50,280 nucleotides of DNA from Ruminococcus sp. (GTDB lineage Bacteria; Bacillota; Clostridia; Oscillospirales; Ruminococcaceae): contig JAGAQC010000061.1 in the NCBI GenBank assembly GCA_017622925.1, positions 1-50,280 of the forward strand, given 5' to 3'. Each line of letters opens with the position of its first letter. The first letter of the stretch is position 1. The position numbers and the translations under genes were made by a program. This document shows positions 11,656-25,822 of this stretch, piece by piece. Under the pieces are notes generated by a model, which ran no database searches, had not been told where the DNA came from, and saw only the letters and a list, made by a program, of their open reading frames with translations.

Positions 11656-11937
11656 TACTATCCACAACTTAGTTGGATATTGTTTCTCGTATCTTTTGCC
11701 AAAAGGTAAATTCTTGAACCATATATCGTAAATTCTCCTGCATAAAGCCCAAAAATATATGGATTCGGATTTATATGGCAGGCTTTATGCAGGAAAATTT
11801 ACGACAACAGAGATTCCAAAGGGGTCACCCCTTTGGCAGGGGTGCGGGGTGACTCCCTACAGTGTAGGGAGATGTCACGAAGTGACAGAGGGTACGGGGC
11901 GGTTAGCCAGCGTCCCCCACTAAAGTTGTAGACAGTG
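11656..11937 (+). mobile_element. Dispersed structured repeat R1, copy 2 (282 bp, flanked by 10-bp direct repeats)
   Basis: Direct repeats TTTTCGGAAC lie at 11646-11655 and 11938-11947. The element between is 282 bp. The outer arms share ACAACTT/AAGTTGT (11657-11676 with about 11917-11936). The inner inverted repeat is 11727-11749 with 11781-11803 (22 of 23 pairs). The conserved GACAACAGAGATTCC tail follows, then the CCAAAGGGG/CCCCTTTGG hairpin, a CTCCCTACA/TGTAGGGAG hairpin, a TGTCAC/GTGACA hairpin, and GGGTACGGGGCGG. It encodes no protein. It fills most of the gene-free stretch 11603-12015. Confidence 0.85.
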
Positions 11938-12015: not shown

Positions 12016-13260
12016 TTATTTAAATACCAAAATCAATACCTGAGAAACTATAACTACAGATATAAGAGCGACAGGGTAAGTCGCAGCGTAAGCGGAAGCA
12101 ACGTCCTCAGTGCCTGCCGTACTGATAAGCGTACCCAATGCAGGAGTGGAGGTCATACCGCCCGTGATAGAGCCGAGATTGTTCAGCAGACTAAGTTTAA
12201 GCACGTACTTAGCAAAGAGGAAACCTAATATCATAGGTACGACAGTCATTATCATGCCGTAGAGGAAGTATACAGGCTCGAAATATTCGGCAAATCTTGC
12301 TCCGCCGGATACTCCTGCGCCAATGAGGAACATAACAAGTCCGAACTCACGGAACACCTTTAGCGTGGAATCCTTCGGCATAATGCTGATTTTTCCGATA
12401 TGACCGATGTGACCGAAAATAAGCGCAACAAGCAGACAGCCGCCCGTAGTTGAAAGTGAAAAATTACCTATTTTGAATGCGCCGACGATTATTCCGATAA
12501 GAGCCGCCGCACCGAAAGGCATGATACCGAAGCCGTCCATTTCAAGCAGTTTGCCTTTAACGGTCTTTTTATCGCTTTTGGAATCAATATTTGCAAGGAG
12601 CTGACGTTCCTCCGCCATATTAGCTTTGAGCATTTTCGGGATTATCTGAACGAAGAACACAACGCCCAGAACTCCGAAGATATAGGCTATTCCGTAGCCT
12701 ACCGAAACAGCGTCAACATAATCCTTTGCCGCTTCTTTTGCTGCCGAGAATCCCGGAGTACTTGTGAGCGCGCCCGAAAGTATACCCGTAAGGAGCGCAG
12801 TAAATTCGCCGCTTTCAAGGTCTGTGAAATTGCGTCCCACAAGAATGCAGCCTGCGCAGGCAAGTCCGCCGCTTAAAATAATGATAACCGCGAGTACAAC
12901 ATATGATTTGAAATTCTTTTTAAAATTGCCGAAGAAGTTCGGACCTGCTATGAACCCTACTGCCGTGACGAACAGGATAAGTCCGATATTATCAATAATT
13001 TTCAGCGCGGACGACACGAACGTTTCCGTATTGACGACGCTGCCTGCTTCGTCCTTCCATTCGACGAAAAGCTGCGCCGACAGATCGTCGTAAAAAAGGC
13101 AGCCGTAAAGCAGCGCAACAAGGAATACTCCTGCTGTGCCGAGGGATATGCCCTTTATTTCGATTCTTCCTAAAATATAACCTAACGAAATTATTCCCAT
13201 GACCGAGAATAAAAGAAAGGAAACGGCTTTGACAGAAAGAATACCGCCAAATAGTTCCAT
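12016..13260 (-). CDS. AspT/YidE-YbjL duplication-type transporter, putative dicarboxylate exporter
   Basis: The 414-residue membrane protein has two homologous halves of about five helices each, joined by a charged cytoplasmic loop (about 215-250). Each half carries a re-entrant motif: LTSTPGFSAA in the first and GGMTSTPALGTL in the second, as in the aspartate-alanine exchanger family. Family members exchange or export amino- and dicarboxylates. It sits last in the redox locus, after the fumarate-reductase-like flavoprotein, so succinate or fumarate/aspartate transport is a reasonable inference; the substrate is not shown by sequence. The ATG at 13260 is preferred because AAAGAG lies eight bases upstream; a GTG three codons earlier is possible. 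Confidence 0.8.
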   Translation of the reverse strand: MELFGGILSVKAVSFLLFSVMGIISLGYILGRIEIKGISLGTAGVFLVALLYGCLFYDDLSAQLFVEWKDEAGSVVNTETFVSSALKIIDNIGLILFVTAVGFIAGPNFFGNFKKNFKSYVVLAVIIILSGGLACAGCILVGRNFTDLESGEFTALLTGILSGALTSTPGFSAAKEAAKDYVDAVSVGYGIAYIFGVLGVVFFVQIIPKMLKANMAEERQLLANIDSKSDKKTVKGKLLEMDGFGIMPFGAAALIGIIVGAFKIGNFSLSTTGGCLLVALIFGHIGHIGKISIMPKDSTLKVFREFGLVMFLIGAGVSGGARFAEYFEPVYFLYGMIMTVVPMILGFLFAKYVLKLSLLNNLGSITGGMTSTPALGTLISTAGTEDVASAYAATYPVALISVVIVSQVLILVFK

Positions 13261-13291
13261 TTTTATCACTCTTTCTTAATTACAAATTGCA

Positions 13292-13474
13292 GGGACGTCA
13301 AAGATACTCACCGCTATTGCAAAATATCCAGTAATGCCGACATAAAATCCGTCTGTCTGCGTCATCTTCCTCACCATACAGCAAGTATGCTTTCGTCATC
13401 TTCCTTGACATACGAATTTTCTGTTCAGCATTCTTTGTATATTTTGCAATAGCGGCGAGTATAAAAGGCGTCCC
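13292..13474. repeat. Long imperfect palindrome (family P), copy A
   Basis: The arms run from GGGACG at 13292 and to CGTCCC at 13474. The best-paired part is 13304-13327 with 13439-13462, 24 bp with one mismatch. The middle contains GTCATCTTCC twice in direct orientation, on either side of an apex with CATAC/GTATG (on the minus strand GCATACTTGCTGTATGG). The same apex occurs in copy B at 49604-49766. The element lies between the flavoprotein gene and the transporter gene, and separates the transporter from the rest of the operon. Confidence 0.75.
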
Positions 13475-13495
13475 TTGAAAATATTTTAAAAATTA

Positions 13496-15094
13496 TTACT
13501 TTCTTGCGTAATGGGGCAGCAGCATGGGTGATACAGTATCTCCTGCAACTCCTGCTTCTGCAAGCTCATTGTTGAATTTTTCGATATGCGCAAGGGTGAG
13601 CTTTTCGGGAACAGGCATATCCTTAGCCTTTGCAGCCGCATTCTTGCCTGCATCTCTGCCGAATACGATAACGTCAAGGAGCGAATTGCCCATAAGACGG
13701 TTTCTGCCGTGAATACCGCCTGCGACCTCGCCTGCCGCATACAGATTTTCAACGTCTGTAGAGCAGTCTACCGAGATATTAAGTCCGCCGTTCTGATAGT
13801 GAAGCGTAGGATAAACAAGTATCGGCTCTTTGCGTATGTCAATGCCGTACTTGCCGAACATACGCATCATGGCAGGTATTCTTTTCTCGATAGTACCCTC
13901 GCCGTGCTTATATTCGATCATAGGCGTGTCGAGCCATACAGCCTTTCCGAGAGGAGTTTCAACGCCCTTGCCGCGTTCCGAGCATTCACGTATAATTGAA
14001 GCCGCAGTTACGTCGCGAGTTTCAAGCGGATGCATGAATACTTCGCCGTCAATATTCACAAGCTTAGCTCCGAGTGAGCGGACTTTCTCCGTAACAAGCG
14101 CGCCGAAGATCTGTTCGGGATATCCTGTGCCTGTGGGGTGATACTGGAGAGTATCGGCATAGAGCAGACCTGCGCCGACACGGTAGCCGAGGATAAGTCC
14201 GTCCGCAGTTGCTCCGTAGTGATTTGATGTCGGGAATCCCTGATAGTGCAGACGTCCTGCGCCGCCCGTAGCGATAATAACGGTCTTTGCACGGGCAACG
14301 AGCAGTTCTTTAGTTTCCATGTTCATGAGGACTGCGCCTGCCGCTTTGCCGTTCTCATCAAGAATTATCTCGATAGCAGCCGTGAAGTCGATAACGGGTA
14401 TGCCCCTGTTAAGTACCTCGTCCCTGAGTGTACGCATGATCTCCGCGCCTGAATAATCCTTTGCGGCGTGCATTCTCTTTCTTGAAGTACCGCCGCCGTG
14501 GGTAGTCACCATTGTGCCGTCGGGTTCTTTATCAAACTCAACGCCCAGCTTATTGAGCCAAAGAATAGCTTCGGGAGCTTTTGTAACAAGGTTCTTTACA
14601 AGCTCTGGTTTAGCGGCAAAGTGACCGCCTCCGAAAGCGTCTATGTAATGGATAGCAGGGGAATCGTTCGGCTTGTCGGCAGCCTGTATACCGCCCTCAG
14701 CCATCATTGTATTTGCATCGCCGATACGAAGCTTGGTAACTATCATAGCCTTTACGCCTGCTTCGTCAGCTTCAATGGCAGCGGAAGCGCCTGCTCCGCC
14801 GCCGCCGATTATCAGAACGTCCGTTTCATAGTCGGGAGCGGAAAGATCGACGTCATCGGCGGATATCCTGCTCTTGCCCTGCAAAAGCTCCGCAAGCTGC
14901 GATGGAACTTTTTCGCCTTTGTTTACGCCTGCGGAAAGCACGGTAAACTCGTCTTGCTTATAATCGGGGTGAAAAGCGGCAAGGAGCGTGTCCTTTTCCT
15001 CCGCAGTCATTCTTCTCGGCTCTAAATCGGCGTTTGCGGCTCTTTTTTCCGCGACCTTTTTTGCCAGCTCATTAAGCTTTTCGATTTTATACAT
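13496..15094 (-). CDS. Soluble FAD-dependent fumarate reductase/succinate dehydrogenase-like flavoprotein
   Basis: The 532-residue protein has an extra N-terminal region (1-90), then an FAD dinucleotide fold (GGGGAGA at 97-103) and the capping domain of the fumarate reductase/aspartate oxidase superfamily. Conserved catalytic features are QYHPTG (317-322), HYQNGG (432-437) and the HGRNRLMGNSLLD motif (462-474). Asn128 sits where membrane enzymes have the histidine that covalently binds FAD (…DANTMMAEGG), so FAD is probably non-covalent. The usual RGEGG segment reads VRSLGA (338-343), which may alter the active site. Its Fe-S partner is directly upstream (13-bp gap). Fumarate to succinate is the likely reaction; aspartate oxidation is less likely, since no nadA or nadC is present. 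It most resembles the thiol:fumarate-reductase A concept. AAGGAGG supports the start. Confidence 0.85.
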   Translation of the reverse strand: MYKIEKLNELAKKVAEKRAANADLEPRRMTAEEKDTLLAAFHPDYKQDEFTVLSAGVNKGEKVPSQLAELLQGKSRISADDVDLSAPDYETDVLIIGGGGAGASAAIEADEAGVKAMIVTKLRIGDANTMMAEGGIQAADKPNDSPAIHYIDAFGGGHFAAKPELVKNLVTKAPEAILWLNKLGVEFDKEPDGTMVTTHGGGTSRKRMHAAKDYSGAEIMRTLRDEVLNRGIPVIDFTAAIEIILDENGKAAGAVLMNMETKELLVARAKTVIIATGGAGRLHYQGFPTSNHYGATADGLILGYRVGAGLLYADTLQYHPTGTGYPEQIFGALVTEKVRSLGAKLVNIDGEVFMHPLETRDVTAASIIRECSERGKGVETPLGKAVWLDTPMIEYKHGEGTIEKRIPAMMRMFGKYGIDIRKEPILVYPTLHYQNGGLNISVDCSTDVENLYAAGEVAGGIHGRNRLMGNSLLDVIVFGRDAGKNAAAKAKDMPVPEKLTLAHIEKFNNELAEAGVAGDTVSPMLLPHYARK

Positions 15095-15107
15095 TGCCTG
15101 CTCCTCC

Positions 15108-15782
15108 TTACTTCTCGATCTCTCGTGTATTGTAAAGCTCCTTGATCTCGTCAATGGGCTTCTGCATCAGGCTTTCGATAAGCTCCTCGAAAGTACCGTC
15201 GTTGATCTCCTTTACACGATCTTTGAGGTGACCGCATTCGGGGGCAAGGTATTTTCCGTTAAGACGGCGCGCAAGCATAGCTACCTGTGGGTGTGAAATA
15301 CCTGCGGGGCAGCGTGACGAGCATACGCCGCACATTACGCAGTCAAAGCTCTCCTCGGCGCATTTTTCGTATTCGCCTCTCTGAGCGTATGCGATGTACT
15401 GCATAACGTTAAGTTCCTGAGTACACGCCTTAGTACAGGCGTTGCAGCCGATACAAGCGTATATTTCGGGATAAAGCTGCATCATTATCTGTTCGGTGGG
15501 CTTTATGTTTTCGATGTTGTAGACCTGCTTGACAAGCGGAAAGAAAGGAAGCGTGGCAACGTACATTCCCTCCTGAACCTCGGTCTGACATGCAAGACAA
15601 GCGTTAAGCTGCTGCTGTCCTTTGATTCGGTATATAGTGGCACATGCGCCGCAGAAACCGTTACGGCAGCCGCAGCCGCGTACAAGCTCATAACCTGCAT
15701 ATTCCATAGCCGTCATGATAGTCAGTCCTGCCGGAACGCTGTATTTTTTGCCGAACAGGTAGACATTAACCATATTATCCAT
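15108..15782 (-). CDS. Fumarate-reductase-type iron-sulfur subunit (FrdB/TfrB-like, without HdrB domain)
   Basis: The 224-residue protein should carry electrons between the Hdr/Flx proteins and the flavoprotein. A plant-type [2Fe-2S] domain occupies about 1-75, with CRNGFCGAC and a later ACLAC. A dicluster domain follows (about 105-165), with CIGCNACTKAC and CVMCGVCSSRCP. The second cluster motif has four cysteines, so two [4Fe-4S] clusters are expected instead of the [3Fe-4S] found in canonical SdhB. Unlike archaeal TfrB it has no C-terminal CCG domain; a separate hdrB lies earlier in the operon. AAAGGAG seven bases upstream fixes the start. Confidence 0.87.
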   Translation of the reverse strand: MDNMVNVYLFGKKYSVPAGLTIMTAMEYAGYELVRGCGCRNGFCGACATIYRIKGQQQLNACLACQTEVQEGMYVATLPFFPLVKQVYNIENIKPTEQIMMQLYPEIYACIGCNACTKACTQELNVMQYIAYAQRGEYEKCAEESFDCVMCGVCSSRCPAGISHPQVAMLARRLNGKYLAPECGHLKDRVKEINDGTFEELIESLMQKPIDEIKELYNTREIEK

Positions 15783-15812
15783 GCTTAAACTCCTTTTTAA
15801 AAGTTGTACTGA

Positions 15813-16640
15813 TCAATATTCATCGGGAAGCGCGTCAAGCTGGTCGAAACGGAACACAGGTCCGTCCTTGCAGACGTACTTATCGCCGATATTGCAGCGT
15901 CCGCACTTGCCGACGCCGCACTTCATGCGAAGCTCCATAGTGGTGTATACCTGAGTTTCGGTAAATCCGAGTTCCTTTAGACCTGCAAGAGTAAACTTTA
16001 TCATTATAGGCGGACCGCATACAAGAACGGTCTTGTTTGTTGAGGGATTCAGCTCCTTGACGTAATTCGGAACGAAGCCCACATGACCGTCCCAGCCCTC
16101 CTGCGGATTGTCGATGGTGAGATTAACCTCTATATTGGGGTCGGCAGTCCATTCGTCGATTATTTCCTTATAATCAACGAGATCGTCCTTTGAACGAGAG
16201 CCGTAGACGATCTGAACGTCGCCGTAATCGGCTCTTTTGTCACGCACGTAATTTATAACGGAGCGTAGGGGCGCAAGACCGATACCACCCGCTACAAAAA
16301 GCAGATCCTTGCCTTTCAGCTCTGTGTCAACGGGAAAATAATTGCCGTAAGGACCTCTTATCGTGATCTGCTGACCCACGTCCATAGCATGGAGCCATGT
16401 AGTAAGGCAGCCGCATTTTTTTATGCTGAACTCCATAAATTCCTTGTTTGTGGGCGACGAGGTAATGGAGAACATGCCCTCGCCCACACCGGGGATAGAA
16501 AGCATAGCGCATTGACCGGGCATATGCTCGAAAACCTTGCCGCCATCGAGGGCGTTTACTCTGAATGTTTTGACATCGGGGGTATCCTGACGTATATCCG
16601 TAACCACTCCGATGAGCGGTATTAAAGTATCATTATTCAT
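15813..16640 (-). CDS. flxA: NAD/FAD-binding oxidoreductase subunit (FlxA/PyrK-like)
   Basis: The 275-residue subunit is the likely NADH entry point. A ferredoxin-reductase FAD domain (about 1-105) has a PGQ...MFSITSSP flavin-binding stretch. An NAD domain (about 110-225) has GGIGLAP at 118-124 and a VCGPP motif. The C-terminus has a [2Fe-2S] motif with Cys241, Cys246, Cys249 and Cys257, as in PyrK, HydG and FlxA. Its ATG at 16640 overlaps the preceding stop (TGATG), so translation is coupled; GGAGG lies seven bases upstream. In Desulfovibrio FlxA delivers NADH electrons to HdrABC, and the surrounding gene order supports the same role here. Confidence 0.88.
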   Translation of the reverse strand: MNNDTLIPLIGVVTDIRQDTPDVKTFRVNALDGGKVFEHMPGQCAMLSIPGVGEGMFSITSSPTNKEFMEFSIKKCGCLTTWLHAMDVGQQITIRGPYGNYFPVDTELKGKDLLFVAGGIGLAPLRSVINYVRDKRADYGDVQIVYGSRSKDDLVDYKEIIDEWTADPNIEVNLTIDNPQEGWDGHVGFVPNYVKELNPSTNKTVLVCGPPIMIKFTLAGLKELGFTETQVYTTMELRMKCGVGKCGRCNIGDKYVCKDGPVFRFDQLDALPDEY

Positions 16641-17659
16641 CACTTATCCTCCAACGCTTTCATAACCTTAACGATATTCATGGATATAGGGCATTTCGAC
16701 AAGCAGCGTCCGCAGCCCACGCAGCCGAATTCGCCGTCGTTGTTTGCAGGGAAGTACACAAGCTTGTGCATGAAACGCTGTCTGAACCGTTCAAGCTGCG
16801 AGTTTCTGGAATTTCCGTGAGCCATTTTCGTAAAATCTGAATACATGCAGGAATCCCAGCAGCGGAAACGCTTTATGCCGTTTCCCGTGTCAAAGTCGCG
16901 TATATCGTAGCATTGACATGTGGGGCATACGAAAGTGCAAGTGCCGCAGCCGAAACAGGATTCCGAAAGCTCCGCCCATTTATCGGAATTGAAATGCTCC
17001 ATAAGTCTTTCGCCGCCGAAAGAATCCGTTGAAAGACCTGCAAGGGGGAGTTTTTTCATGATATTTCGTGCATTCTCCTGAACCTCAGCAAGCTTTGAAG
17101 CGTCGCCGTTCTCCAGCAAATCGGAAACGGAGGCGACAAAAGCCTCGCCCTTTGGGGTATTATCGAGGAAGAAATAATTCTCTCCGTCAAAGAATACCGA
17201 AACGTCGCCGCCCGGAACAGTGGGGTCGATGCCGAAAGTCGTACAGAAGCAAGTCTCGGCAGGACGTGTGCATGCCATAGTTACGATAGTACCGTGGTCA
17301 CGGCGGTTTTTATAGAAGCTGTCAACGGGTTCTGAAAGGAACACCTTGTCGAGTATACCGAAGCTGCGAGCGTCGCAGGCGCGCACTCCGAATACGACGA
17401 AATCCTCGTTTTCCTTACGAATGTCCTTGACCTCTATGGTCTTGCCGCTCATTTTAAATTCCGCAAGGTTTTCGGTCTGCGGAAAGAAGAAATCCTTTGC
17501 GCTGCGTACCGTATTCAGAGCCTTGCTCATAGTCATGCCGCTCTCGTATTTTTTGTACTCGGAAACGTTCGGTTCGCGGTCAACGGGGATATACAAGGTC
17601 TGTTTTTCGGCTATCCTGTCAAAAAGCGCGTTTAAATTTGAAGCAGAAATTTTAAGCAT
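16640..17659 (-). CDS. 4Fe-4S dicluster subunit (FlxB/AsrA-like)
   Basis: The 339-residue protein has an N-terminal alpha/beta region with VFGVRACDARSFGILD, like subunit A of anaerobic sulfite reductase and FlxB-type proteins. The C-terminal dicluster domain has CFGCGTCTFVCPTCQC (about 230-250) and CVGCGRCLSKCP (about 315-326). A further CWDSC lies between. It is expected to relay electrons between FlxA and the MvhD/Hdr module. The start overlaps the upstream stop as TAATG. No sulfite reductase catalytic gene (asrC) is present, so sulfite reduction is not supported. Which Flx letter applies is uncertain. Confidence 0.8.
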   Translation of the reverse strand: MLKISASNLNALFDRIAEKQTLYIPVDREPNVSEYKKYESGMTMSKALNTVRSAKDFFFPQTENLAEFKMSGKTIEVKDIRKENEDFVVFGVRACDARSFGILDKVFLSEPVDSFYKNRRDHGTIVTMACTRPAETCFCTTFGIDPTVPGGDVSVFFDGENYFFLDNTPKGEAFVASVSDLLENGDASKLAEVQENARNIMKKLPLAGLSTDSFGGERLMEHFNSDKWAELSESCFGCGTCTFVCPTCQCYDIRDFDTGNGIKRFRCWDSCMYSDFTKMAHGNSRNSQLERFRQRFMHKLVYFPANNDGEFGCVGCGRCLSKCPISMNIVKVMKALEDK

Positions 17660-18630
17660 TATTCAGCGCCCCTTTCATGAACGACAGACGGTTCGCAGTC
17701 GTCCGTTCTGTAATCGGTAAGAGGAGCTTTGGAGGTCGTGTCCGCGCCTGCCTGATATTCACCGTAAAGGCAGTTTATATCCTTGATGAACTTTCTGTTG
17801 AGCAGGTGCAGCGGAATATTCTGCGGACACACTCTCGAGCATTCTCCGCAGTCGGTACATCTTCCTGCAACATGGAACGCGCGGATAATGTGGAACATAT
17901 TCTCCTCAAAGGAATCGGCAGCCGCTTTCTGATCTATGCCCGACTTGGGATTATCGAACACGCAGTTTTCGCACGTACATGCAGGGCAGACGTTGCGGCA
18001 GGCGTTACAGCGGATACATCTGGAAAGCTCGCCCCTCCAGAAGTCGTAACGCTCCTGAGCGGTCATATTTTCAAGCTTTTCCACCATATCGAAGCGGTTT
18101 GAATCGAGAACGTCCCCGTCCTCTCCGATAAGCTCGTCATAAACAACGTGCTTTTTGCTCTTGCAGCTTTCGCACTTTACGCTTATCGCCTCGTAGAAAG
18201 GCATTGTCTCAACACCGTAGATAGTCTCGATCTTCAGGGTAAAGTCCTCGTTTTTAACGTTGGTGATACCCGTGATGCCCTTTGCCTTTATCTTCTCGAT
18301 ATCTATCTTAGGACCTCCGGGAATGCCGATAACATAGACGTTCTCACGGATTATTCTGTGTTCCTTGACAAGCTGATTGAAGCTGTATGTATCGCAGGGT
18401 TTGAGCAGGGCAAGAATTTTTCCCTCTTTCCGTGATTCTTTGATAAGATATTTTGACTGATTAGCCTGAGTAAAGTCGTTGTAAACAAATTCCCTGTCGA
18501 TCTCCTCCGCCGTTTCAAAAACAGCAGGAGTCGTATCATAAGCAAATTCGCCCTTTTTCCAGCCCATAACACGGTTTACAGTGCCGTCTGCAAGGAGTTC
18601 CTTTGCTCTTTTAATCATTGCTTCCTGCAT
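17659..18630 (-). CDS. 4Fe-4S subunit of the Flx module (F420-hydrogenase-beta/HdrC-like)
   Basis: The 323-residue protein has an N-terminal region reminiscent of coenzyme F420 hydrogenase/formate dehydrogenase beta-type proteins (LLKPCDTYSFNQLVKEH). It then has an extra KCESCKSKK pair, and two cluster motifs, CIRCNACRNVCPACTC and CTDCGECSRVCPQNIP. It is most likely FlxC-like, relaying electrons within the NADH dehydrogenase module. GGAGG stands seven bases before the start. It overlaps the MvhD/FlxD gene by 16 bp and the next gene by 1 bp, which indicates one tightly coupled mRNA. Confidence 0.78.
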   Translation of the reverse strand: MQEAMIKRAKELLADGTVNRVMGWKKGEFAYDTTPAVFETAEEIDREFVYNDFTQANQSKYLIKESRKEGKILALLKPCDTYSFNQLVKEHRIIRENVYVIGIPGGPKIDIEKIKAKGITGITNVKNEDFTLKIETIYGVETMPFYEAISVKCESCKSKKHVVYDELIGEDGDVLDSNRFDMVEKLENMTAQERYDFWRGELSRCIRCNACRNVCPACTCENCVFDNPKSGIDQKAAADSFEENMFHIIRAFHVAGRCTDCGECSRVCPQNIPLHLLNRKFIKDINCLYGEYQAGADTTSKAPLTDYRTDDCEPSVVHERGAE

Positions 18631-19055
18631 CGTAAATCCTCCAATCTTCGATTAGGACCGAGCTTTTTAACGTCCTCGACGAATTGGTTCATAACAGCCG
18701 CAAACTTCGCTCCCTCGGCTGCCGATACCCATTCAAGACGTGTTCTGTTGCGCTCGATACCGAGAAAATCAAGCATACTGTAAAGAAGCGTTATTCTTCT
18801 TCTTGTGAAATAGTTTCCCGAAGTATAGTGACAGTCTCCGGGGTGACAGCCGCAGATGATAACGCCGTCCGCACCTCTCTGAAAGGCTCGGAGAATAAAC
18901 ATCGGATTCACTCTGCATGAGCAGGGAACACGGATTATCTTTACATTTGCGGGATAATTCAGTCTGTTAGTGCCTGAAAGGTCGGCTCCTGCATAGGAAC
19001 ACCAGTTACAGCAGAATGCGACTATTACAGGCTCAAAATTTTCATTTACTTGCAT
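18615..19055 (-). CDS. flxD: MvhD/FlxD-type [2Fe-2S] subunit
   Basis: The 146-residue protein is a full-length MvhD/FlxD homologue: FCCNWCSYAGAD near residue 14, a VPCSCRVNP segment, and ICGCHPGDCHYTSGN supply the cluster cysteines. In methanogens and Desulfovibrio this subunit docks the electron-donating module (Mvh hydrogenase or Flx) onto HdrA. Its position directly after hdrA (10-bp overlap) and before the Flx subunits fits this. The common CSGR is CSCR here, adding a cysteine. The start has GGAGG ten bases upstream. Confidence 0.92.
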   Translation of the reverse strand: MQVNENFEPVIVAFCCNWCSYAGADLSGTNRLNYPANVKIIRVPCSCRVNPMFILRAFQRGADGVIICGCHPGDCHYTSGNYFTRRRITLLYSMLDFLGIERNRTRLEWVSAAEGAKFAAVMNQFVEDVKKLGPNRRLEDLRCRKQ

Positions 19056-21037
19056 ATTGCGTCTACCTCCGCCATGATCTGACTGTTAGAGAAGCCGTTG
19101 AGATCCATAGCTCCCGAAGGACAAGCCACCGTACATGCGCCGCAGCCCTGACATACGGCAGGGTTTACGCTTGCAACACGGCGTATAGCTGTGGAACGGT
19201 CGGGCATTCTGAATTCCTTATCCTGATAAGTGATGGCTCCGTAAGGACAAACCTTTTCGCATGCGGAACAGCCGTTGCACATAAGCTCGTCGGAATGAGC
19301 GACGCAAGGGTTGCACGTAATGCTGTTCTTGCAGAGAAGTCCGATAGCCTTAGCCGCAGCCGCGCTTGCCTGAGCGACAGTCTCGGGAATATCTTTAGGA
19401 CCCTGACATGCGCCCGAAAGGAAGATACCTGCCGTTGCCGATTCTACGGGACGGAGCTTCGGGTGAGCTTCTGTAAAGAAGTCGTTCGTATCCATCTGAG
19501 TTGTGAGCATCGTAGCAAGGGGACGAGCCGTTTTATCGGGTTCTATAGCCGCCGCAAGAACGACCATATCGGCGTTGATATGAAGCTGTTCGTTGGCGAG
19601 AAGATCGGACGCCTGAACGTCAATTTTTCCGTCCGCCTTTGGAGTTACCTTGCCGACCATGCCCTTGATATAGTGAACGTTGTATTGTTCAACGGCGCGG
19701 CGGTAGAATTCGTCGAAATTCTTTCCGGGAGTACGCACGTCTATGTAGAAAACGTAAACCTCGGTATCGGGGTATTTTTCACGGATAAGCATAGCGTGTT
19801 TTGCCGTATACATACAGCATATCTTTGAGCAGTAGGGTTTGCCCTTTTCGTCGTCGCATCGTGAACCTACGCACTGTACGAAAACGATAGTGTGAGGGTG
19901 CGTCTTATCCGACGGGCGAAGCAGCGTTCCGCCGTTAGGACCTGCCGCGTTCATAAGTCTTTCCAGTTCAAGGGAGGTAACAACGTCGGGACAGCAGCTA
20001 TATGCAAATTCGTCGTATTTATCGAGCTTTATGGGATTGAAGCCAGTAGCTACTACGATAGCGCCGTATTTCTGTTCAATAAATTTATCCGTCTGCTTGT
20101 AGTCGATAGCGCCCACCGAGCAGACCTTTGAGCATACGCCGCATTTGCCGTTTTTCAGCATCATGCAGTAATTCGGGTCGATCGTTGCGACTTTCGGAAC
20201 TGCCTGAGCAAAGGGAATATACACGGCTGTTCTGTTGTCAAGTCCCATGTTAAATTCGTTGGGAACTTTTTTCATCGGGCATTTTTCGGTACAAAGACCG
20301 CAGCCGGTACATTTTGTTTCGTCAACGTAACGAGCCTTTTTCTTGATAGTTACGGTAAAGTTTCCCACGAATCCCTTGACGTCGCTTACCTCGCTGAACG
20401 AATGTATCGTGATATGCTCGTTCTGAGAAGCCTCGACCATTTTAGGGGTAAGTATACATGCGGCGCAGTCGAGGGTCGGGAATGTCTTGTCGATCTGAGC
20501 CATTTTTCCGCCGATAGTGGGTTCTTTTTCAACAATATCAACGTCAAATCCTGCTTCGGCAATATCGAGAGCCGTCTGAATACCTGCAATACCGCCGCCG
20601 ATGACCAGCGCGCGTTTTACAACGGGGCTTTCTCCTGCCGTCAGGGGAGCGTTGAGGTGAACCTTTGCAACAGCCGCCTTTCCGAGGATGATCGCCTTAT
20701 CCGTAGCGGAGGCTATGTCCTTGTGTATCCACGAACACTGTTCGCGTATATTTGCTATCTCCACAAGATACGGGTTAAGCCCTGCGGAAGCTGCCGCCTT
20801 TCTGAACGTATTCTCGTGCATTCTCGGCGAACAGGAGCATATGACAACTCCCGTAAGTCCATGCTCTTTGATAGCGTTTTTAACAAGCTCCTGTCCCGAT
20901 TCGGAGCACATATACTGGTAATCCTGAGAGACAACAACTCCCGGTTCATGGGAAAGAGCCTCTGCAACAGCCTTAACGTCCACCGTAGCGGCGATATTTG
21001 TACCGCAGTGGCAGACAAAAACACCAATTCTCTGCAT
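19046..21037 (-). CDS. hdrA: Heterodisulfide reductase subunit A (bifurcating flavoprotein)
   Basis: The 663-residue flavoprotein is the electron-bifurcating core of Hdr complexes. It shows the N-terminal GVFVCHCGTNI region and the FAD-binding GGGIAGIQTALDIAEAG at about 150. Four cluster motifs are seen: CTGCGLCTEKCP (about 240), a CGVCSKVC segment (about 298), CNGCSACEKVCPYGA (about 588) and CQGCGACTVACPSGA (about 626). The last two form a ferredoxin-like C-terminal domain, the probable low-potential exit to ferredoxin. Its length matches full HdrA. AAGGAGG precedes the start. It lies between hdrC (12-bp gap) and flxD (overlap). Confidence 0.95.
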   Translation of the reverse strand: MQRIGVFVCHCGTNIAATVDVKAVAEALSHEPGVVVSQDYQYMCSESGQELVKNAIKEHGLTGVVICSCSPRMHENTFRKAAASAGLNPYLVEIANIREQCSWIHKDIASATDKAIILGKAAVAKVHLNAPLTAGESPVVKRALVIGGGIAGIQTALDIAEAGFDVDIVEKEPTIGGKMAQIDKTFPTLDCAACILTPKMVEASQNEHITIHSFSEVSDVKGFVGNFTVTIKKKARYVDETKCTGCGLCTEKCPMKKVPNEFNMGLDNRTAVYIPFAQAVPKVATIDPNYCMMLKNGKCGVCSKVCSVGAIDYKQTDKFIEQKYGAIVVATGFNPIKLDKYDEFAYSCCPDVVTSLELERLMNAAGPNGGTLLRPSDKTHPHTIVFVQCVGSRCDDEKGKPYCSKICCMYTAKHAMLIREKYPDTEVYVFYIDVRTPGKNFDEFYRRAVEQYNVHYIKGMVGKVTPKADGKIDVQASDLLANEQLHINADMVVLAAAIEPDKTARPLATMLTTQMDTNDFFTEAHPKLRPVESATAGIFLSGACQGPKDIPETVAQASAAAAKAIGLLCKNSITCNPCVAHSDELMCNGCSACEKVCPYGAITYQDKEFRMPDRSTAIRRVASVNPAVCQGCGACTVACPSGAMDLNGFSNSQIMAEVDAICK

Positions 21038-21049
21038 ATCCGCTCCTCC

Positions 21050-21433
21050 TTACTTCGTGTATTTTCTGAATGCCGTAACGATAGCCTGCTGGGGCAGATC
21101 GTCGTCGAGCATATCGGGTATCTGATCGGGGAGCAGGTGATTGTTCCCCTGTTTGCGTACTGCCGTAAGACGTACAGCCTCTATGACCTTTGCAGGCTCA
21201 ACTCCTCTGGGACATCTTTCCACACAGGCAAAGCAGGTCAGGCATTTATACAGCGATTTTGAGTTCAGAAGCGGTTCAATATCTCCCTTTTCGACCATAT
21301 AAACAAACTGGTGCGGATGATATTCCATTTCGTCGTAGGAGGGACAGGTCGCCGAGCATTTTCCGCATCTCATGCACTTGCGGACGTTTACTCCGCTTGT
21401 AATATCTATCCAGTCCTTTTCGTTCTTATTCAT
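21050..21433 (-). CDS. hdrC: Heterodisulfide reductase subunit C
   Basis: The 127-residue protein carries two [4Fe-4S] clusters (CMRCGKCSATCP near residues 20-31 and CLTCFACVERCPRG near 64-77) and links HdrA to HdrB. The start follows AAGGAGG, and its first codons overlap the end of hdrB by 8 bp. The size is short but normal for stand-alone HdrC. Confidence 0.92.
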   Translation of the reverse strand: MNKNEKDWIDITSGVNVRKCMRCGKCSATCPSYDEMEYHPHQFVYMVEKGDIEPLLNSKSLYKCLTCFACVERCPRGVEPAKVIEAVRLTAVRKQGNNHLLPDQIPDMLDDDLPQQAIVTAFRKYTK

Positions 21434-22220
21434 TGCCGACCTCCTTCAAGCCCAGAGCCTCCGCAAGAAGCTCCGTGAAGTAGTACACAGGCAGACTGCT
21501 GCCCGAATTTTTTTTCAGATTGTACAGACAGAGGGGACACGCCGTAATTATCATATCAGCTCCCATGCTCTCTGCGGAACTCATAACGGCATTGCTGCGT
21601 TTAGCCGCCTGAGCCTTATCCTCAAGGGTGATATATCCGCCGCAGCACTCGTTTCTCTGAGCGTAGATAACGGGCGTTCCGCCTATCGCCCTAATAAAGT
21701 CCTCCATGATAGAGGGATTTTCGGGGTCGTCCATAGCGAGAGCCTTAGAGGGGCGGAGCAGGAGACAGCCGTAATAAGCGGCGATCTTCTTACCTTTTAA
21801 AGGGTTCACGACCTTTGCTTTCAGATTGTCGAAGCCCACAACGTCACGGAGCAGTTCGAGGTAGTGGTAGACCTTTGTTTCGCCCGTGTAAGCTTCGTCA
21901 AGTTCAAGGTAACGCTGTACCTTGACAGCCATAGCCTCGTTTCTGGAAATATCGTAATTAGTCTGCTTGATAACGTTATGGCACGCCGAACATACGGTAA
22001 CAAGTCCCTCTGTTTCCTTAGCAGCCATAAGCGTCCTTACGGCGGAGAGCTTTGTGGCAGGTTCGTTTGTTGCCGATGTATACGCGCCGCCGCAGCACTG
22101 CCAGTTCTCAGGTTCGATAAGACCGATACCGAGAGCTTCGGCAGACGCTCTTGCATAGGCGTCGAGGTCTTTCGCCTTAGTCCTCAGCGTACAGCCGGGG
22201 TAGTATGTAAATGTCTGCAT
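21426..22220 (-). CDS. hdrB: Heterodisulfide reductase subunit B
   Basis: The 264-residue catalytic Hdr subunit has two complete CCG domains. The first is Cys10-x31-Cys42-Cys43-x33-Cys77-x2-Cys80; the second is Cys152-x39-Cys192-Cys193-x34-Cys228-x2-Cys231. In methanogens these cysteines bind two noncubane [4Fe-4S] clusters where CoM-S-S-CoB is reduced. All ligands are present, so the site should be functional, yet this organism is not expected to own CoM or CoB; the natural acceptor is open. It follows fumC by 22 bp and starts with AAAGGA upstream. Confidence 0.93.
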   Translation of the reverse strand: MQTFTYYPGCTLRTKAKDLDAYARASAEALGIGLIEPENWQCCGGAYTSATNEPATKLSAVRTLMAAKETEGLVTVCSACHNVIKQTNYDISRNEAMAVKVQRYLELDEAYTGETKVYHYLELLRDVVGFDNLKAKVVNPLKGKKIAAYYGCLLLRPSKALAMDDPENPSIMEDFIRAIGGTPVIYAQRNECCGGYITLEDKAQAAKRSNAVMSSAESMGADMIITACPLCLYNLKKNSGSSLPVYYFTELLAEALGLKEVGNE

Positions 22221-22242
22221 AATATCTTCCTTTCATGACAGA

Positions 22243-23619
22243 TTACGCCATCTGCTCGGGGTGGAAAACCTCGTCGAATTTTTCTTCCGTGAGGAAACCA
22301 AGCTCTACGCAGGCTTGTTTAAGTGAAATGTTGTCCTTGAAAGCCTTTTTAGCGGTCTTAGCGGCATTTTCGTAGCCGATATACGGGTTGAGCGCAGTAA
22401 CGAGCATGAGGGAATTATGCAGATTATGGTGCATTTTCTCCTTGTTTGCCCTGATACCGACAGCGCAGTTTTTATTGAAGGACATTATCGACTCTGCAAG
22501 CAGACGCGCCGACTGTAAGAAATTATATGCGCATACGGGCATAAATACGTTAAGCTCGAAGTTGCCCTGAGAAGCCGCCATGCCGACAGCCACGTCGTTG
22601 CCCATTACCTGTACCGCGACCATAGTAGCCTGTTCGCATTGAGTGGGATTTACCTTGCCGGGCATAATGGAAGAGCCGGGTTCGTTCTCGGGGATAAAAA
22701 TTTCTCCCAAACCGTCACGAGGACCCGAAGCCAGCCAGCGAACGTCGTTTGCTATCTTCATCATATCGGCGGCAAGAGCTTTCAATGCGCCGTGTGCGAA
22801 TACGATCTCGTCCTTTGAAGTAAGCGAGTGGAACTTATTTTCGGCAGTAACAAAATTCTTTCCCGTAAGCTCGCTTATAGCAGCCGCCGATCTCTCGGCA
22901 AATCCCTTTGGCGCATTAAGTCCCGTACCAACGGCAGTTCCGCCGAGCGCAAGTTCTTTCAGTTCCTCGCAGGAAGAAAGTATCATTTTCTTATCCTTTT
23001 CAAGGGAAGCTCTCCAGCCGCTTATTTCCTGAGAGAACTTAATGGGGGTAGCGTCCTGAAGATGCGTGCGTCCGCTCTTTACGATGCCCTCGTTTTCCGC
23101 TTCAAGTCTTTTGAAAGTCCCGATAAGCGTATCAACAGCCGGAACGACCTTATCCTCAATGGCAATTACAGCGGCAATGTGCATTGCTGTGGGGAACGTA
23201 TCGTTTGACGATTGGCTCATATTAATATCATCGTTAGGGTGAAGAAGCTTGCTGCCTGCTATCTCGTTTCCACGGTTGGCAATGACCTCGTTTGCGTTCA
23301 TATTGGATTGAGTTCCGCTGCCTGTCTGCCATACGACAAGGGGGAAATGGTCGTTGAGAGAGCCGCTTATCACCTCGTCGCACGCCTGAGAAATCGCGGA
23401 AAGCTTTTCGTCTGTCATTTTCTCGGGACGCAGCTCATGGTTAGCTATGGCAGCAGCCTTTTTGAGTATGCCGAAAGCGTGAGTTATCTCACGGGGCATA
23501 GTCTCGATACCGACGCCGATAAGGAAATTTTCGTGACTTCTTTCGGTCTGAGCTGCCCAGTATTTATCAGCAGGCACTTTTACCTCTCCCATAGAGTCAT
23601 GTTCAATACGATAATCCAT
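22243..23619 (-). CDS. fumC: Class II fumarate hydratase (fumarase C)
   Basis: This 458-residue cytosolic enzyme interconverts malate and fumarate without an iron-sulfur cluster. It has the superfamily signature GSSIMPGKVN, the SSNDTFPTA segment, and the SGRTHLQDATP catalytic stretch. Its place between rex and the Hdr operon (22 bp before hdrB) suggests it supplies fumarate for the downstream flavoprotein. The ATG at 23619 is preferred; a GTG four codons earlier is part of the AAAGGTGG ribosome site. Confidence 0.95.
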   Translation of the reverse strand: MDYRIEHDSMGEVKVPADKYWAAQTERSHENFLIGVGIETMPREITHAFGILKKAAAIANHELRPEKMTDEKLSAISQACDEVISGSLNDHFPLVVWQTGSGTQSNMNANEVIANRGNEIAGSKLLHPNDDINMSQSSNDTFPTAMHIAAVIAIEDKVVPAVDTLIGTFKRLEAENEGIVKSGRTHLQDATPIKFSQEISGWRASLEKDKKMILSSCEELKELALGGTAVGTGLNAPKGFAERSAAAISELTGKNFVTAENKFHSLTSKDEIVFAHGALKALAADMMKIANDVRWLASGPRDGLGEIFIPENEPGSSIMPGKVNPTQCEQATMVAVQVMGNDVAVGMAASQGNFELNVFMPVCAYNFLQSARLLAESIMSFNKNCAVGIRANKEKMHHNLHNSLMLVTALNPYIGYENAAKTAKKAFKDNISLKQACVELGFLTEEKFDEVFHPEQMA

Positions 23620-23680
23620 TGCAGTTACCACCTTTAATTAAAGAATTTATTTACTCACTTTCCAAAAGATAGTGATTTTT

Positions 23681-24322
23681 TTAACAAACATTACTGTTCG
23701 GATTAAGACGATAGGACAATGTGGCAAGACTGTCGCCGAGGTGAACGTTTTCCACTGCAATATCCGCATGGTCAATACGCAGGTCGTAGTGGGTGAAGTT
23801 CCAGAAAGCCTTTATCCCCAGTCCGATAAGCCTTTCGACTTCCTTTGCAGCAGCCTCTTTCGGAATGCAGAGGACTGCGCCCTTGGGTTTGGTCCTTCTG
23901 CAAAAGGAATCCAGACCGCTTATGTCGGACACGGTAATATCGCCTATCTTTCTGCCGATAATTTCTTTGCTTGCGTCAAAGATACCGACAAGCTCGAAGC
24001 CCTTGCTGCGGAAGTCGATATGCGAAGCGATAGCTCTGCCGAGATTTCCTGCGCCGAGCAGTATCATCGGGGTCACTCTGTCAAGCCCCAGTATTCTTCC
24101 GATCTCTCCTCTGAGCGCGCTGACGTTATAGCCGTAGCCCTGCTGACCGAATTCGCCGAAGCAGTTAAAGTCCTGACGTATCTGAGAAGCGGTAAGACCC
24201 ATTTTTTCGGCAAGCTCTCTTGATGAGATCCGAACGTATCCGTTAGCTTCCAGTTCGCCGAGAAAACGGTGGTATCTCGGCAGACGTCTGATAACGGAAT
24301 TGGAAATTGTGTTTTTCGACAT
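23681..24322 (-). CDS. rex: Redox-sensing transcriptional repressor Rex
   Basis: The 213-residue repressor senses the NADH/NAD+ ratio. The winged-helix DNA-binding domain is at 1-80, with SSRELAEKMGLTASQIRQD, followed by FGEFGQQGYGYNV. The Rossmann domain has GAGNLG at 90-95. It lies just before fumC and the Hdr-Flx locus, which makes it the natural regulator of this NADH-consuming pathway (inference). The start has GGGAGG nine bases upstream; the longer frame to 24370 has none. Confidence 0.95.
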   Translation of the reverse strand: MSKNTISNSVIRRLPRYHRFLGELEANGYVRISSRELAEKMGLTASQIRQDFNCFGEFGQQGYGYNVSALRGEIGRILGLDRVTPMILLGAGNLGRAIASHIDFRSKGFELVGIFDASKEIIGRKIGDITVSDISGLDSFCRRTKPKGAVLCIPKEAAAKEVERLIGLGIKAFWNFTHYDLRIDHADIAVENVHLGDSLATLSYRLNPNSNVC

Positions 24323-24396: not shown

Positions 24397-24607
24397 CATA
24401 AGAGAATTTTGTTACCCTTTACTCTTGTCAGAGAAGTAACTCTTGGTGTTCGTTCTCGTGAATCGGACTGTGGAAATCATGGGGACTAACAATATCGAAC
24501 TAATTCGAGGATTTCCACAGCCCGATTCACGACAACAGAGATTCCAAAGGGGTCACCCCTTTGGCAGGGGGTGCAGGGGGACGGAGTCCCCCGCATAAGT
24601 TGCAGAC
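24387..24607 (+). repeat. Dispersed structured repeat R1, copy 3
   Basis: A 221-bp copy. Imperfect outer arms are 24387-24402 and 24593-24608. The GTAACTCTTGGTG block is at 24437-24449. The inner inverted repeat is 24457-24478 with 24510-24531 (21 of 22 pairs). The conserved tail starts at 24531 with the CCAAAGGGG hairpin and GGGGGAC/GTCCCCC. Compared with copy 1 the inner stem differs at two pairs, and both are compensated on the other arm. It abuts the icd stop codon at 24611. Confidence 0.8.
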
Positions 24608-24610
24608 GGT

Positions 24611-25822
24611 TTAAATAAGCTTATCGAGATTTTTTCTGATCTCCTCAAGGAATGTCTTGGAATCGACCTTTTTCTTGTTTTCAAGCTTTGAGATGAGATA
24701 CAGATCGCCTGTCATAACGCCGTTTTCGATAGTCTGAATCGTTGCCTTTTCAAGCTTATCCGCAAATTCGCAAAGCTCGGGAGTTCCGTCAAGCTCTCCT
24801 CTTTTGCGGAGTGCGCCCGACCATGCAAAAATGGTTGCAACGGAGTTTGTGGAGGTCTCCTCGCCTTTGAGGTACTTGTAATAGTGACGCTGAACAGTGC
24901 CGTGAGCCGCTTCGTATTCGTAAATTCCGTCGGGAGAAACAAGAACGGAGGTCATCATAGCAAGCGAACCGTATGCCGTTGAGACCATATCGGACATTAC
25001 GTCGCCGTCATAGTTTTTGCATGCCCAGATATAGCCGCCGTTGGAACGTATAACACGAGCGACCGCGTCGTCGATAAGCGTATAGAAATACTCGATACCG
25101 GCAGCTTCATATTTTTCCTTATACTCGTTTTCGTATATCTCTGCAAAAATGTCCTTGAAACGGTGGTCGTACTTCTTGGAAATAGTGTCCTTTGTGGCGA
25201 ACCATACGTCTTGTTTCAGGTCAAGACCGTAGTTAAGACACGCTCTTGCAAAGCCTGCAATGGAGTTGTCGAGATTGTGAAGTCCCTGAATGATACCGTC
25301 CGATTTTGCAAAATCATGGATAAGCTCACGAGTTTCGTTTCCGTTCTCGTCCGTAACTACCAGTTCAGCCTTGCAGCCCTTTTCAACTCGCATTTCGGTA
25401 TTTTTGTATACGTCGCCGTAAGCGTGACGGGCGATAGTTATGGGTTTTGTCCATGTAGGAATGTACGGCTCGATTCCCTTAACGATAATGGGCGTTCTGA
25501 AAACTGTTCCGTCAAGAGCCGCTCTGATAGTGCCGTTGGGAGATTTCCACATCTGAGTAAGATTGTACTCGGGCATTCTTGCGGCGTTTGGCGTAATGGT
25601 CGCGCACTTTACGGCAACGCCGTATTTTTTTGTAGCCTCTGCGGAATCTATAGTGACCTGATCCTTGGTTTCCTCACGGTGCTGAAGTCCGAGGTCGTAG
25701 TATTCCGTGTTAAGTTCAACATATGGTTCAAGAAGAATTTCCTTTATCCACTGCCAGAGGATTCGGGTCATTTCATCTCCGTCCATTTCCACAAGGGGCG
25801 TTTTCATAGTAATTTTTGCCAT
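24611..25822 (-). CDS. icd: NADP-dependent isocitrate dehydrogenase
   Basis: The 403-residue enzyme converts isocitrate to 2-oxoglutarate with NADPH production. It is the eukaryote-like homodimeric subfamily, shown by [15 protein letters not shown] near the start, [30 protein letters not shown], and the NADP-site [16 protein letters not shown]. With aconitase 3 kb further along the same strand it provides carbon for glutamate. The start at 25822 has GGAGG nine bases before it. It lies 56 bp after two small genes and could be read from their promoter. Confidence 0.96.

What the first reader, a model, noticed from the sequence alone, without database searches (positions are those of the whole stretch)
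12016..24322. Candidate electron-bifurcating, NADH-driven cytosolic fumarate reductase (Hdr-Flx-Frd locus)
Seen: one minus-strand gene string rex, fumC, hdrB, hdrC, hdrA, flxD, two Fe-S subunits, flxA, an FrdB-like Fe-S protein, an FrdA-like flavoprotein and, after a palindrome, an AspT-type carrier. From hdrB to the flavoprotein the genes overlap or lie within about 30 bp. Known: HdrABC-FlxABCD in Desulfovibrio couples NADH oxidation to ferredoxin and a disulfide acceptor; archaeal TfrAB reduces fumarate with CoM/CoB thiols. Inference: here the high-potential acceptor is fumarate through the Frd pair, so 2 NADH would reduce fumarate and ferredoxin together. This would conserve energy in succinate fermentation without a membrane fumarate reductase. 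I know of no described system with exactly this composition.
Basis: partly seen in the sequence, partly recalled or inferred. Interest (0 to 1): 0.92.

Follow-up and report, generated by a model that had tools for sequence, protein, structure and literature searches.

The report
Ferredoxin-coupled soluble fumarate reductase operon
A gut bacterium related to Ruminococcus flavefaciens carries one operon that probably lets it make succinate inside the cell while storing extra energy as reduced ferredoxin; the idea was proposed earlier for another bacterium, and I found no experiment that has shown it.

Summary
The operon is real: rex, fumC, hdrBCA, flxDCBA, frdB, frdA, then an AspT-type carrier, in a Ruminococcus flavefaciens-lineage genome. 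The composition is not new: a fumarase/Hdr-Flx/fumarate-reductase 'succinate operon' is described for Pseudoclostridium thermosuccinogenes (PMC7282089, citing a 2019 preprint I could not read). Support: FrdA keeps the mapped catalytic residues in 163 family rows; HdrA keeps the Glu/Lys pair that marks bifurcating HdrA; the only other FrdA relative found in the genome is NadB; no Sdh_cyt anchor was found; Rnf is present. In 291 species of the class, FrdA (40) and HdrA (41) co-occur in 39. What I add: across the phylum this FrdAB travels with its own HdrB lineage. The 20 best HdrB matches among 299 species all lie in the 30 FrdAB-bearing ones, and share residue changes close to the iron-sulfur ligands; some loci hold only frdBA+hdrBC. 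FrdB has two [4Fe-4S] motifs and no CCG domain. I read this as direct HdrBC-to-FrdAB electron transfer, like a membrane-free E-type fumarate reductase, rather than a diffusible thiol. Other lineages pair the same FrdAB with cytochromes or lack Hdr nearby.

The parts
23681..24322 (-). rex: redox-sensing repressor (Rex-type DNA-binding N-terminus plus nucleotide-binding domain), first gene of the string
   Evidence: PF06971 and PF02629; ribosome site; found in 29 of 80 related loci at over 60% identity
23670..23687 (-). candidate Rex box TTGTTAAAAAAATCACTA between rex and fumC
   Evidence: 11 of 12 fixed positions of the recalled consensus TTGTKANNNNNNTMACAA; such a site (>=11/12) within 200 bp before fumC in 22 of 27 scored loci with rex and 1 of 32 without; partly overlaps the end of rex
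22243..23631 (-). fumC: class II fumarase, makes fumarate (GTG 23631 or ATG 23619)
   Evidence: PF00206 3e-107 and PF10415; kept in related loci
21426..22220 (-). hdrB, FrdAB-associated type: two CCG domains, all ten cluster cysteines kept, signature T11/V83/Y196
21050..21433 (-). hdrC: two [4Fe-4S] motifs
19046..21037 (-). hdrA: FAD/Fe-S subunit with E359 and K413, aligned with E356/K409 of M. thermolithotrophicus HdrA
18615..19055 (-). flxD: MvhD/FlpD-like subunit
   Evidence: PF02662 3e-55
17659..18630 (-). flxC: Fe-S dicluster subunit
16640..17659 (-). flxB: Fe-S subunit like beta subunits of sulfhydrogenases and AsrA
15813..16643 (-). flxA: FAD/NAD(P)-binding and [2Fe-2S] subunit, NADH entry
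   Evidence: PF00175, PF10418, PF00970
15108..15782 (-). frdB: N-terminal [2Fe-2S] domain plus two complete four-cysteine [4Fe-4S] motifs, no CCG domain
13496..15094 (-). frdA: flavoprotein with about 85 extra N-terminal residues and no long C-terminal domain; H319 T335 E336 R339 R360 H432 R466 kept; N128 where E. coli FrdA has the FAD-binding His
12016..13269 (-). AspT/YidE-type carrier with two Asp-Al_Ex domains, candidate succinate exporter
   Evidence: PF06826, TIGR01625; next gene after frdA in 57 of 74 loci with at least 1.3 kb beyond frdA

Best explanation
The operon encodes a soluble, NADH-driven, electron-bifurcating fumarate reductase with its fumarase and a likely succinate exporter. 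FlxA oxidises NADH; electrons pass through FlxB/C/D to HdrA, whose FAD splits them. Low-potential electrons reduce ferredoxin, which Rnf can turn into an ion gradient. High-potential electrons go through HdrC and a dedicated HdrB directly into FrdB and FrdA, which reduces fumarate. Net: 2 NADH + fumarate + Fd(ox) -> 2 NAD+ + succinate + Fd(red), about -49 kJ/mol under standard conditions (NADH -320 and Fd -420 mV from PMC5861303; fumarate +33 mV recalled). Shown here: gene content, conserved residues, co-occurrence, HdrB specialisation. Inferred: the reaction, the bifurcation, direct HdrB-FrdB contact, succinate export, Rex control.
For: Conserved locus: 65 of 80 related loci complete, 15 cut by contig ends. 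Class sample of 291 species: FrdA in 40, HdrA in 41, both in 39; 33 of the 39 within 4.2 kb on one contig, 6 on separate draft contigs (Fisher 8e-45, relatedness ignored). On the FrdA tree the Hdr-Flx link needs at least 3 changes, and the three lineages have three gene orders. Catalytic residues invariant in 163 FrdA rows, 136 distinct sequences, one gap at R466. HdrA E359 in 96 of 96 and K413 in 97 of 97 rows read, the pair used to tell bifurcating HdrA. Phylum sample of 299: the 20 best HdrB matches (199 bits and up, window included) are all in the 30 FrdA-bearing species (Fisher 4e-24); all 20 have T11/V83/Y196, while none of the 7 loci from FrdA-lacking genomes among the next 10 has the set. 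Frd-type HdrB is one side of a 100/100 branch. G044 holds both HdrB kinds, the Frd kind next to frdBA. Loci with frdBA+hdrBC and no hdrA in the stretch exist (L122, L125). The TfrB model covers FrdB-, HdrC- and HdrB-like parts in one chain. Own genome: Rnf C-D-G-E-A-B by domain and order, GTP-PEPCK, NadB as only other FrdA relative found, no Sdh_cyt, no other CCG protein found. In P. thermosuccinogenes the operon rises about 4-fold under CO2 limitation, not significant for all subunits.
Against: I found no enzyme of this kind purified or assayed. The same FrdAB clade has no Hdr in the stretch read in 10 of 23 fetched phylum places (two of these start near a contig end) and lies beside a cytochrome b in 3, so Hdr-Flx is not its only possible donor. 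3 of 30 FrdAB-bearing species have no HdrA match at the cut-off, and 14 of 27 with HdrA have it elsewhere. 10 of 30 FrdAB species lack an HdrB above 199 bits; two of them (G033, G075) show the general type. HdrB keeps all ten cysteines of the disulfide-reducing site, so thiol chemistry is not excluded. A gnotobiotic-sheep study says high frd transcription seen in Fibrobacter was not observed in R. flavefaciens and R. albus, and lists acetate, formate and H2 as their products (one passage of PMC8092306; data not shown there). HdrABC genes alone do not prove bifurcation. 5 of 27 scored rex-bearing loci lack a good Rex box.
Confidence: 0.65

Rival explanations
1. Two separate enzymes joined by a small thiol: Hdr-Flx reduces a disulfide and ferredoxin with NADH, and FrdAB reduces fumarate with the dithiol, as archaeal TfrAB does with CoM-SH/CoB-SH.
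For: HdrB keeps both CCG motifs with all ten cysteines. FrdA's best NCBIfam score is the TfrA model, below its cut-off. In 14 of 27 phylum species with both, HdrA is not near frdA.
Against: FrdB has no CCG domain and no other CCG protein was found in the genome, so FrdAB lacks the thiol-oxidising part of TfrB. HdrB is specialised with FrdAB, even in a genome that also holds a general HdrB, which a shared thiol would not need.
Confidence: 0.12
2. A soluble NADH:fumarate reductase without bifurcation: HdrA is only a wire and no ferredoxin is reduced.
For: Non-bifurcating complexes with HdrA homologues exist (passage of PMC9430772); NADH to fumarate alone is strongly exergonic.
Against: HdrA keeps E359/K413 in every row read and the cysteines of the C-terminal two-cluster domain in nearly every one. 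A plain NADH enzyme would hardly need HdrA and four Flx subunits.
Confidence: 0.13
3. The complex runs mainly in reverse, oxidising succinate with reduced ferredoxin to make NADH (confurcation) in an oxidative or syntrophic pathway; icd lies next door.
For: icd lies upstream of rex on the same strand, and in 28 of the 29 related loci with rex; related FrdAB in other families sits with succinyl-CoA ligase-like, 2-oxoacid:ferredoxin oxidoreductase and malic enzyme genes.
Against: Uphill by about 49 kJ/mol under standard conditions; N128 replaces the FAD-binding His, and loss of that His in E. coli FrdA is recalled to spare fumarate reduction but not succinate oxidation; fumarase, AspT-type carrier and GTP-PEPCK fit succinate formation.
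Confidence: 0.05
4. The flavoprotein acts on another substrate (for example aspartate or another unsaturated acid).
For: NadB and other FrdA relatives share much of the active site; MmgE/PrpD-family genes lie near frdBA in L132 (tested) and by sequence cluster in L128 and L133.
Against: A separate nadB with nadC is in the genome; fumarase is in this operon, and two-subunit fumarase genes sit beside frdBA in other families; catalytic residues invariant.
Confidence: 0.05

Closest known systems
'Succinate operon' of Pseudoclostridium thermosuccinogenes (passages of PMC7282089; preprint 10.20944/preprints201912.0288.v1 known by its citation only)
   Same: Fumarate hydratase, seven Flx-Hdr genes, two fumarate reductase genes and a possible succinate transporter in one operon, with the same coupling proposed
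   Different: Other genus; here rex and a candidate Rex box stand in front and the carrier is AspT-like; I did not compare sequences with that genome
HdrABC-FlxABCD NADH dehydrogenase/heterodisulfide reductase (Desulfovibrio vulgaris; Ramos 2015, seen as a citation)
   Same: Same seven subunits by family
   Different: HdrB belongs to a separate FrdAB-associated lineage, and frdBA is in the operon; no Desulfovibrio sequence was compared
E-type enzyme SdhABE of Wolinella (passages of PMC2680327; called 8-methylmenaquinol:fumarate reductase in NCBIfam)
   Same: FrdA-family subunit, FrdB-like subunit with a second [4Fe-4S] in place of [3Fe-4S], and a ten-cysteine HdrB-like partner; HdrB's best NCBIfam score is the SdhE model, below its cut-off
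   Different: HdrB here stands with HdrC and HdrA-Flx, no quinone role seen; FrdA lacks the FAD-binding His
Thiol:fumarate reductase TfrAB (methanogens)
   Same: Soluble (recalled); the TfrB model covers FrdB-, HdrC- and HdrB-like parts in one chain, a precedent for direct contact
   Different: Here the CCG part is a separate HdrB; proposed donor is NADH, not CoM/CoB thiols
MetVF-HdrABC-MvhD methylene-THF reductase (Moorella, Sporomusa; passages of PMC9430772)
   Same: HdrABC feeding a flavoprotein in place of a disulfide; pull-downs show HdrB-MetF contact
   Different: Other terminal enzyme; the passages name HdrBCA, MvhD and MetVF only
Flx-Hdr/KorABCD/TfrAB cluster of tubeworm symbionts (passages of PMC6315080, PMC11636981)
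   Same: Flx-Hdr interspersed with a putative fumarate reductase; direct transfer suggested
   Different: rTCA carbon fixation in Gammaproteobacteria; TfrAB type

Membership tests
HdrABC-FlxABCD | FlxA with FAD/NAD and [2Fe-2S] domains, FlxB, FlxC, FlxD(MvhD) beside hdrBCA | tested here: met
HdrABC-FlxABCD | HdrA with the bifurcating-flavin Glu/Lys pair | tested here: met
   E359/K413 align with E356/K409, criterion, 96 of 96 and 97 of 97 rows
HdrABC-FlxABCD | HdrB with two CCG motifs of the disulfide-reducing kind | tested here: inconclusive
   all ten cysteines kept, but residues 11, 53, 83, 186 and 196 differ from the general Hdr-Flx HdrB
HdrABC-FlxABCD | NADH oxidation coupled to ferredoxin reduction | not testable with these tools
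   needs enzyme
Soluble FrdA-family fumarate reductase | catalytic His, Thr, Glu, Arg residues of FrdA | tested here: met
   mapped on E. coli FrdA (1kf6, 3p4p); invariant in 163 rows (R466 162 and a gap); residue roles recalled
Quinol:fumarate reductase (FrdABCD / SdhABCD) | membrane anchor subunit | tested here: not met
   none in the operon and no PF01127 in the genome, 88% complete; other anchor families were not searched
Thiol:fumarate reductase TfrAB | FrdB fused to CCG domains | tested here: not met
   FrdB 224 aa without CCG
E-type SdhABE / MFR | FrdB with a second [4Fe-4S] motif, and a ten-cysteine HdrB-like subunit | tested here: met
   definition
E-type SdhABE / MFR | quinone reactivity and membrane attachment | not tested
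   no data
L-aspartate oxidase NadB | score above the nadB model cut-off, and nad genes next to it | tested here: not met
   276.7 bits against cut-off 452.75; NadB-like protein beside nadC elsewhere, names by sequence
P. thermosuccinogenes type succinate operon | fumarase + Flx-Hdr + FrdAB + carrier in one operon | tested here: met
   against the gene list; sequence identity not tested

The most novel reading that the evidence does not exclude
FrdAB plus a dedicated HdrB(C) is a core of its own: a soluble, E-type-like fumarate reductase in which the HdrB double non-cubane site has been turned from a disulfide reductase into an electron inlet for FrdB. Lineages of the phylum plug this core into different donors: HdrA-FlxABCD with NADH here, long HdrA fusions near 2-oxoacid:ferredoxin oxidoreductase genes (L115, L120), HdrBC alone (L122, L125), or, without the special HdrB, cytochrome b. 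This would be a family of soluble bifurcating fumarate reductases with HdrB as the adaptor.
Probability: 0.5. Interest if true: 0.75.

Novelty: new member of a known kind. Interest (0 to 1): 0.6.

Why it matters
R. flavefaciens is known (recalled) as a succinate-forming fibre degrader of the rumen. If the complex works as read, each succinate brings one reduced ferredoxin and so extra ion pumping by Rnf or extra H2, which changes energy-yield and hydrogen budgets in rumen models. It would also add fumarate to the acceptors of HdrABC bifurcation, and the HdrB signature gives a sequence marker for such enzymes that FrdA/Sdh annotation alone would miss.

Tried and rejected
Rejected: a separate membrane fumarate reductase in the genome (with the limits above); FrdA being NadB; a TfrB-like thiol site on FrdB. 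Weak and kept only as a lead: the plain Rex-box scan of the whole window, 44 matches against 29 +/- 5.5 expected with up to 3 mismatches, says little; only the positional test across relatives helps, with mononucleotide shuffles and related sequences. Promoter-like sites 20 against 17.7 +/- 4.9 in shuffles. No ATP-type PEPCK found, GTP-type found.

Literature: R. flavefaciens with heterodisulfide and fumarate reductase gave 2 papers; of these I saw passages of PMC6776011, not of PMC9817038. R. flavefaciens with fumarate reductase gave 20, of which I opened passages of PMC8092306 and PMC6776011 only. The listings, some capped (40 of 156, 30 of 62, 15 of 68), showed no title on a purified enzyme of this kind. 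All this is one open-licence library. The preprint was not held. No paper was read whole; passages only.

Limits of counts: one search kept the best 80 of 576 loci, so its synteny is of near relatives. Class and phylum samples were drawn by the tool (291, 299 species), with cut-offs of 1e-120 (class), 1e-60 and 1e-150 (phylum FrdA, HdrA). I counted as FrdAB clade the 30 phylum species with a match of at least 49% identity; the next is at 41%. For HdrB the cut at 199 bits was set after seeing the gap to 185 bits. Of the 30 clade places outside the window I fetched 23; G056, G088, G123, G180, G205, G254 and G296 were not read. L114 and L123 begin within 2.2 kb of a contig end. L129 is cut at a contig end and got no label. 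Several neighbour names in the 23 places rest on sequence clusters with one member tested by Pfam. L126 was dropped from the HdrA tree as too short and was not put in the HdrB tree; L200, L205 and L206 gave no usable HdrB. The F group was set from the HdrA tree; the unselected test is. In the FrdA tree class loci were labelled HdrFlx, including L176 (G363, no HdrA found) and six with HdrA on another contig; G485 has FrdA in two pieces and G462 HdrA in two. FrdA and HdrA trees are quick searches; several inner branches are not well supported.


Full report
What is there. The minus strand of 12016-24322 holds rex, fumC, hdrB, hdrC, hdrA, flxD, flxC, flxB, flxA, frdB, frdA and an AspT-type carrier. 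From hdrB to frdA neighbouring genes overlap by up to 16 bp or lie up to 30 bp apart. The genome belongs to the Ruminococcus flavefaciens lineage: the best relative is an uncultured Ruminococcus MAG at 99% FrdA identity, and R. flavefaciens FD-1 has the same locus.

Is it a stable unit? Of the 80 loci kept (best of 576), 65 show hdrB to frdA complete in this order and 15 are cut by a contig end. In a sample of 291 species of the class, FrdA is found in 40 and HdrA in 41; 39 have both. In 33 of the 39 they lie within 4.2 kb; in 6 they are on different draft contigs. G558 has them in another order. The unmatched ones are G363 (75% complete, FrdA only), G327 (62% complete, HdrA only) and G319 (a distant HdrA). 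The Fisher value (8e-45) ignores relatedness.

Is FrdA a fumarate reductase? Against solved structures it aligns with SdhA/FrdA, flavocytochrome c and NadB over its FAD domain. The residues that align with the catalytic ones of E. coli FrdA (roles recalled) are H319, T335, E336, R360, H432 and R466; these and R339 are invariant in 163 family rows (window included, 136 distinct sequences), with one gap at R466. N128 stands where E. coli FrdA has the histidine that binds FAD covalently; recalled work on that histidine suggests such enzymes favour fumarate reduction. FrdA lacks the long C-terminal domain and has about 85 extra N-terminal residues, kept in the clade. None of the 25 NCBIfam models shown passes its cut-off; TfrA scores best. 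FrdB has an N-terminal [2Fe-2S] domain and two complete four-cysteine motifs, and no CCG domain. A second [4Fe-4S] in place of [3Fe-4S] is a mark of E-type enzymes (PMC2680327, passages).

Is HdrA of the bifurcating kind? It aligns end to end with methanogen HdrA. The Glu/Lys pair used to tell bifurcating HdrA (PMC9430772, passages) is E359/K413 here, found in 96 of 96 and 97 of 97 rows read. This is a prediction; PMC5861303 warns that such genes alone do not prove bifurcation (passages).

Rest of the genome. The only other FrdA relative found is NadB beside nadC. No Sdh_cyt anchor and no other CCG protein were found. There is a set with the domains and order of rnfCDGEAB, three [FeFe]-hydrogenase proteins, one of them in a HydABC-like set, and GTP-PEPCK but no ATP-PEPCK. 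The genome is 88% complete, so absences are provisional.

The wider family. In 299 species of the phylum, 30 carry the full-length FrdA clade. HdrA at 1e-150 is in 98 species, in 27 of these 30, and within 8.4 kb in 13. In 23 fetched places the partners differ: complete Hdr-Flx (L117, L121, L124, L131); HdrB+HdrC only (L122, L125); long HdrA forms with hdrBC and no flxAB (L115, L120, L126); two-subunit fumarase, malic enzyme and other carbon genes without Hdr (L112 by Pfam; L116 and L130 by Pfam or cluster); cytochrome b (L132, L133, L134, all by Pfam); multihaem cytochromes (L119); succinyl-CoA ligase-like genes (L126, L127). L113, L114, L118, L123 and L128 show no Hdr in the stretch; L129 is cut off. 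On the FrdA tree the Hdr-Flx link needs at least three changes, and the three lineages have three gene orders, so the link arose or was lost more than once.

The HdrB result. HdrB from FrdAB-bearing genomes forms one side of a 100/100 branch, 26 rows against 12 from other Hdr-Flx sets; three of those 12 are second HdrBs, or the only one compared, in FrdAB-bearing genomes (G044, G281, G039). An unselected test followed: ranking the HdrB matches in the 299 species, the best 20 (199 bits and above, window included) all come from the 30 FrdAB species (Fisher 4e-24, relatedness ignored, cut set after seeing the gap). All 20 have T11, V83 and Y196, within three residues of cluster ligands C10, C80 and C193. 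Of the next 10 loci read, the 7 from genomes without FrdAB have S11 and none has the full set; G091 (FrdAB present) has T, V, S; G033 and G075 (FrdAB; G033 and G075 loci with cytochrome b) have the general type. G044 holds both kinds, the special one next to frdBA and the general one in a separate Hdr-Flx set, which argues against mere species relatedness. All ten cluster cysteines are kept in both kinds. I read this as HdrB adapted to hand electrons to FrdB; it remains inference.

Mechanism and energetics. See the best explanation. With E0' of -320 mV (NADH) and -420 mV (Fd) from PMC5861303 and +33 mV for fumarate (recalled), the coupled reaction is about -49 kJ/mol. HdrABC serving a flavoprotein has a precedent in MetVF-HdrABC-MvhD, where HdrB-MetF contact was seen by pull-down. 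CCG-domain clusters placed as an electron wire, though with altered ligands, are described for mycobacterial EtfD (PMC13083937, passages).

Control and export. A Rex-box-like site lies between rex and fumC; 22 of 27 scored related loci with rex have one before fumC, 1 of 32 without. The AspT-type carrier follows frdA in 57 of 74 loci. An AspT-family succinate exporter (SucE of Corynebacterium) is recalled, not tested.

What is known. PMC7282089 (passages) describes the same operon content in P. thermosuccinogenes, assumes the coupling to ferredoxin, and cites the 2019 preprint, which is not held. PMC6315080 and PMC11636981 (passages) discuss Flx-Hdr with TfrAB in tubeworm symbionts. Against importance in vivo: PMC8092306 (one passage) says the high frd transcription seen in Fibrobacter was not observed in the two ruminococci in gnotobiotic sheep.

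Noticed in passing
window 13291-13475: Pair of 40-nt inverted arms (83%) in a stretch of about 150 nt between frdA and aspT that L003 and L004 lack; looks like a small inserted element. A 20-base core was found exactly in no other locus held than L001, which is the window's own stretch.
   Followed up: partly
window 11816-11836 and 24544-24564: The same 21-nt palindrome CCAAAGGGGTGACCCCTTTGG flanks the region on both sides, beside other inverted repeats (24452-24536, 11726-11804); perhaps a repeated intergenic element.
   Followed up: no
phylum genomes: Many HdrA genes in the phylum hold one in-frame TGA, possibly selenocysteine; two loci in hand have a stop at the place of window C194. The window's HdrA has cysteine there.
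   Followed up: no
L132, L133, L134, L119: The same FrdAB clade beside a cytochrome b561-type protein, or beside multihaem cytochromes and an FMN_bind protein, suggesting membrane-linked versions.
   Followed up: partly
L072: Record titled Bacteroidaceae MAG carries this operon and groups inside the clostridial HdrA and HdrB trees; probably mis-binned.
   Followed up: no
L032 and L081: One R. flavefaciens MAG (UBA2900) yields two frdA loci (90% and 92% to the window): strain mixture or a second copy.
   Followed up: no
window 24611-25867: icd (PF00180) precedes rex on the same strand; seen in 28 of 80 related loci, all of them with rex; the flank held in the others is short.
   Followed up: partly
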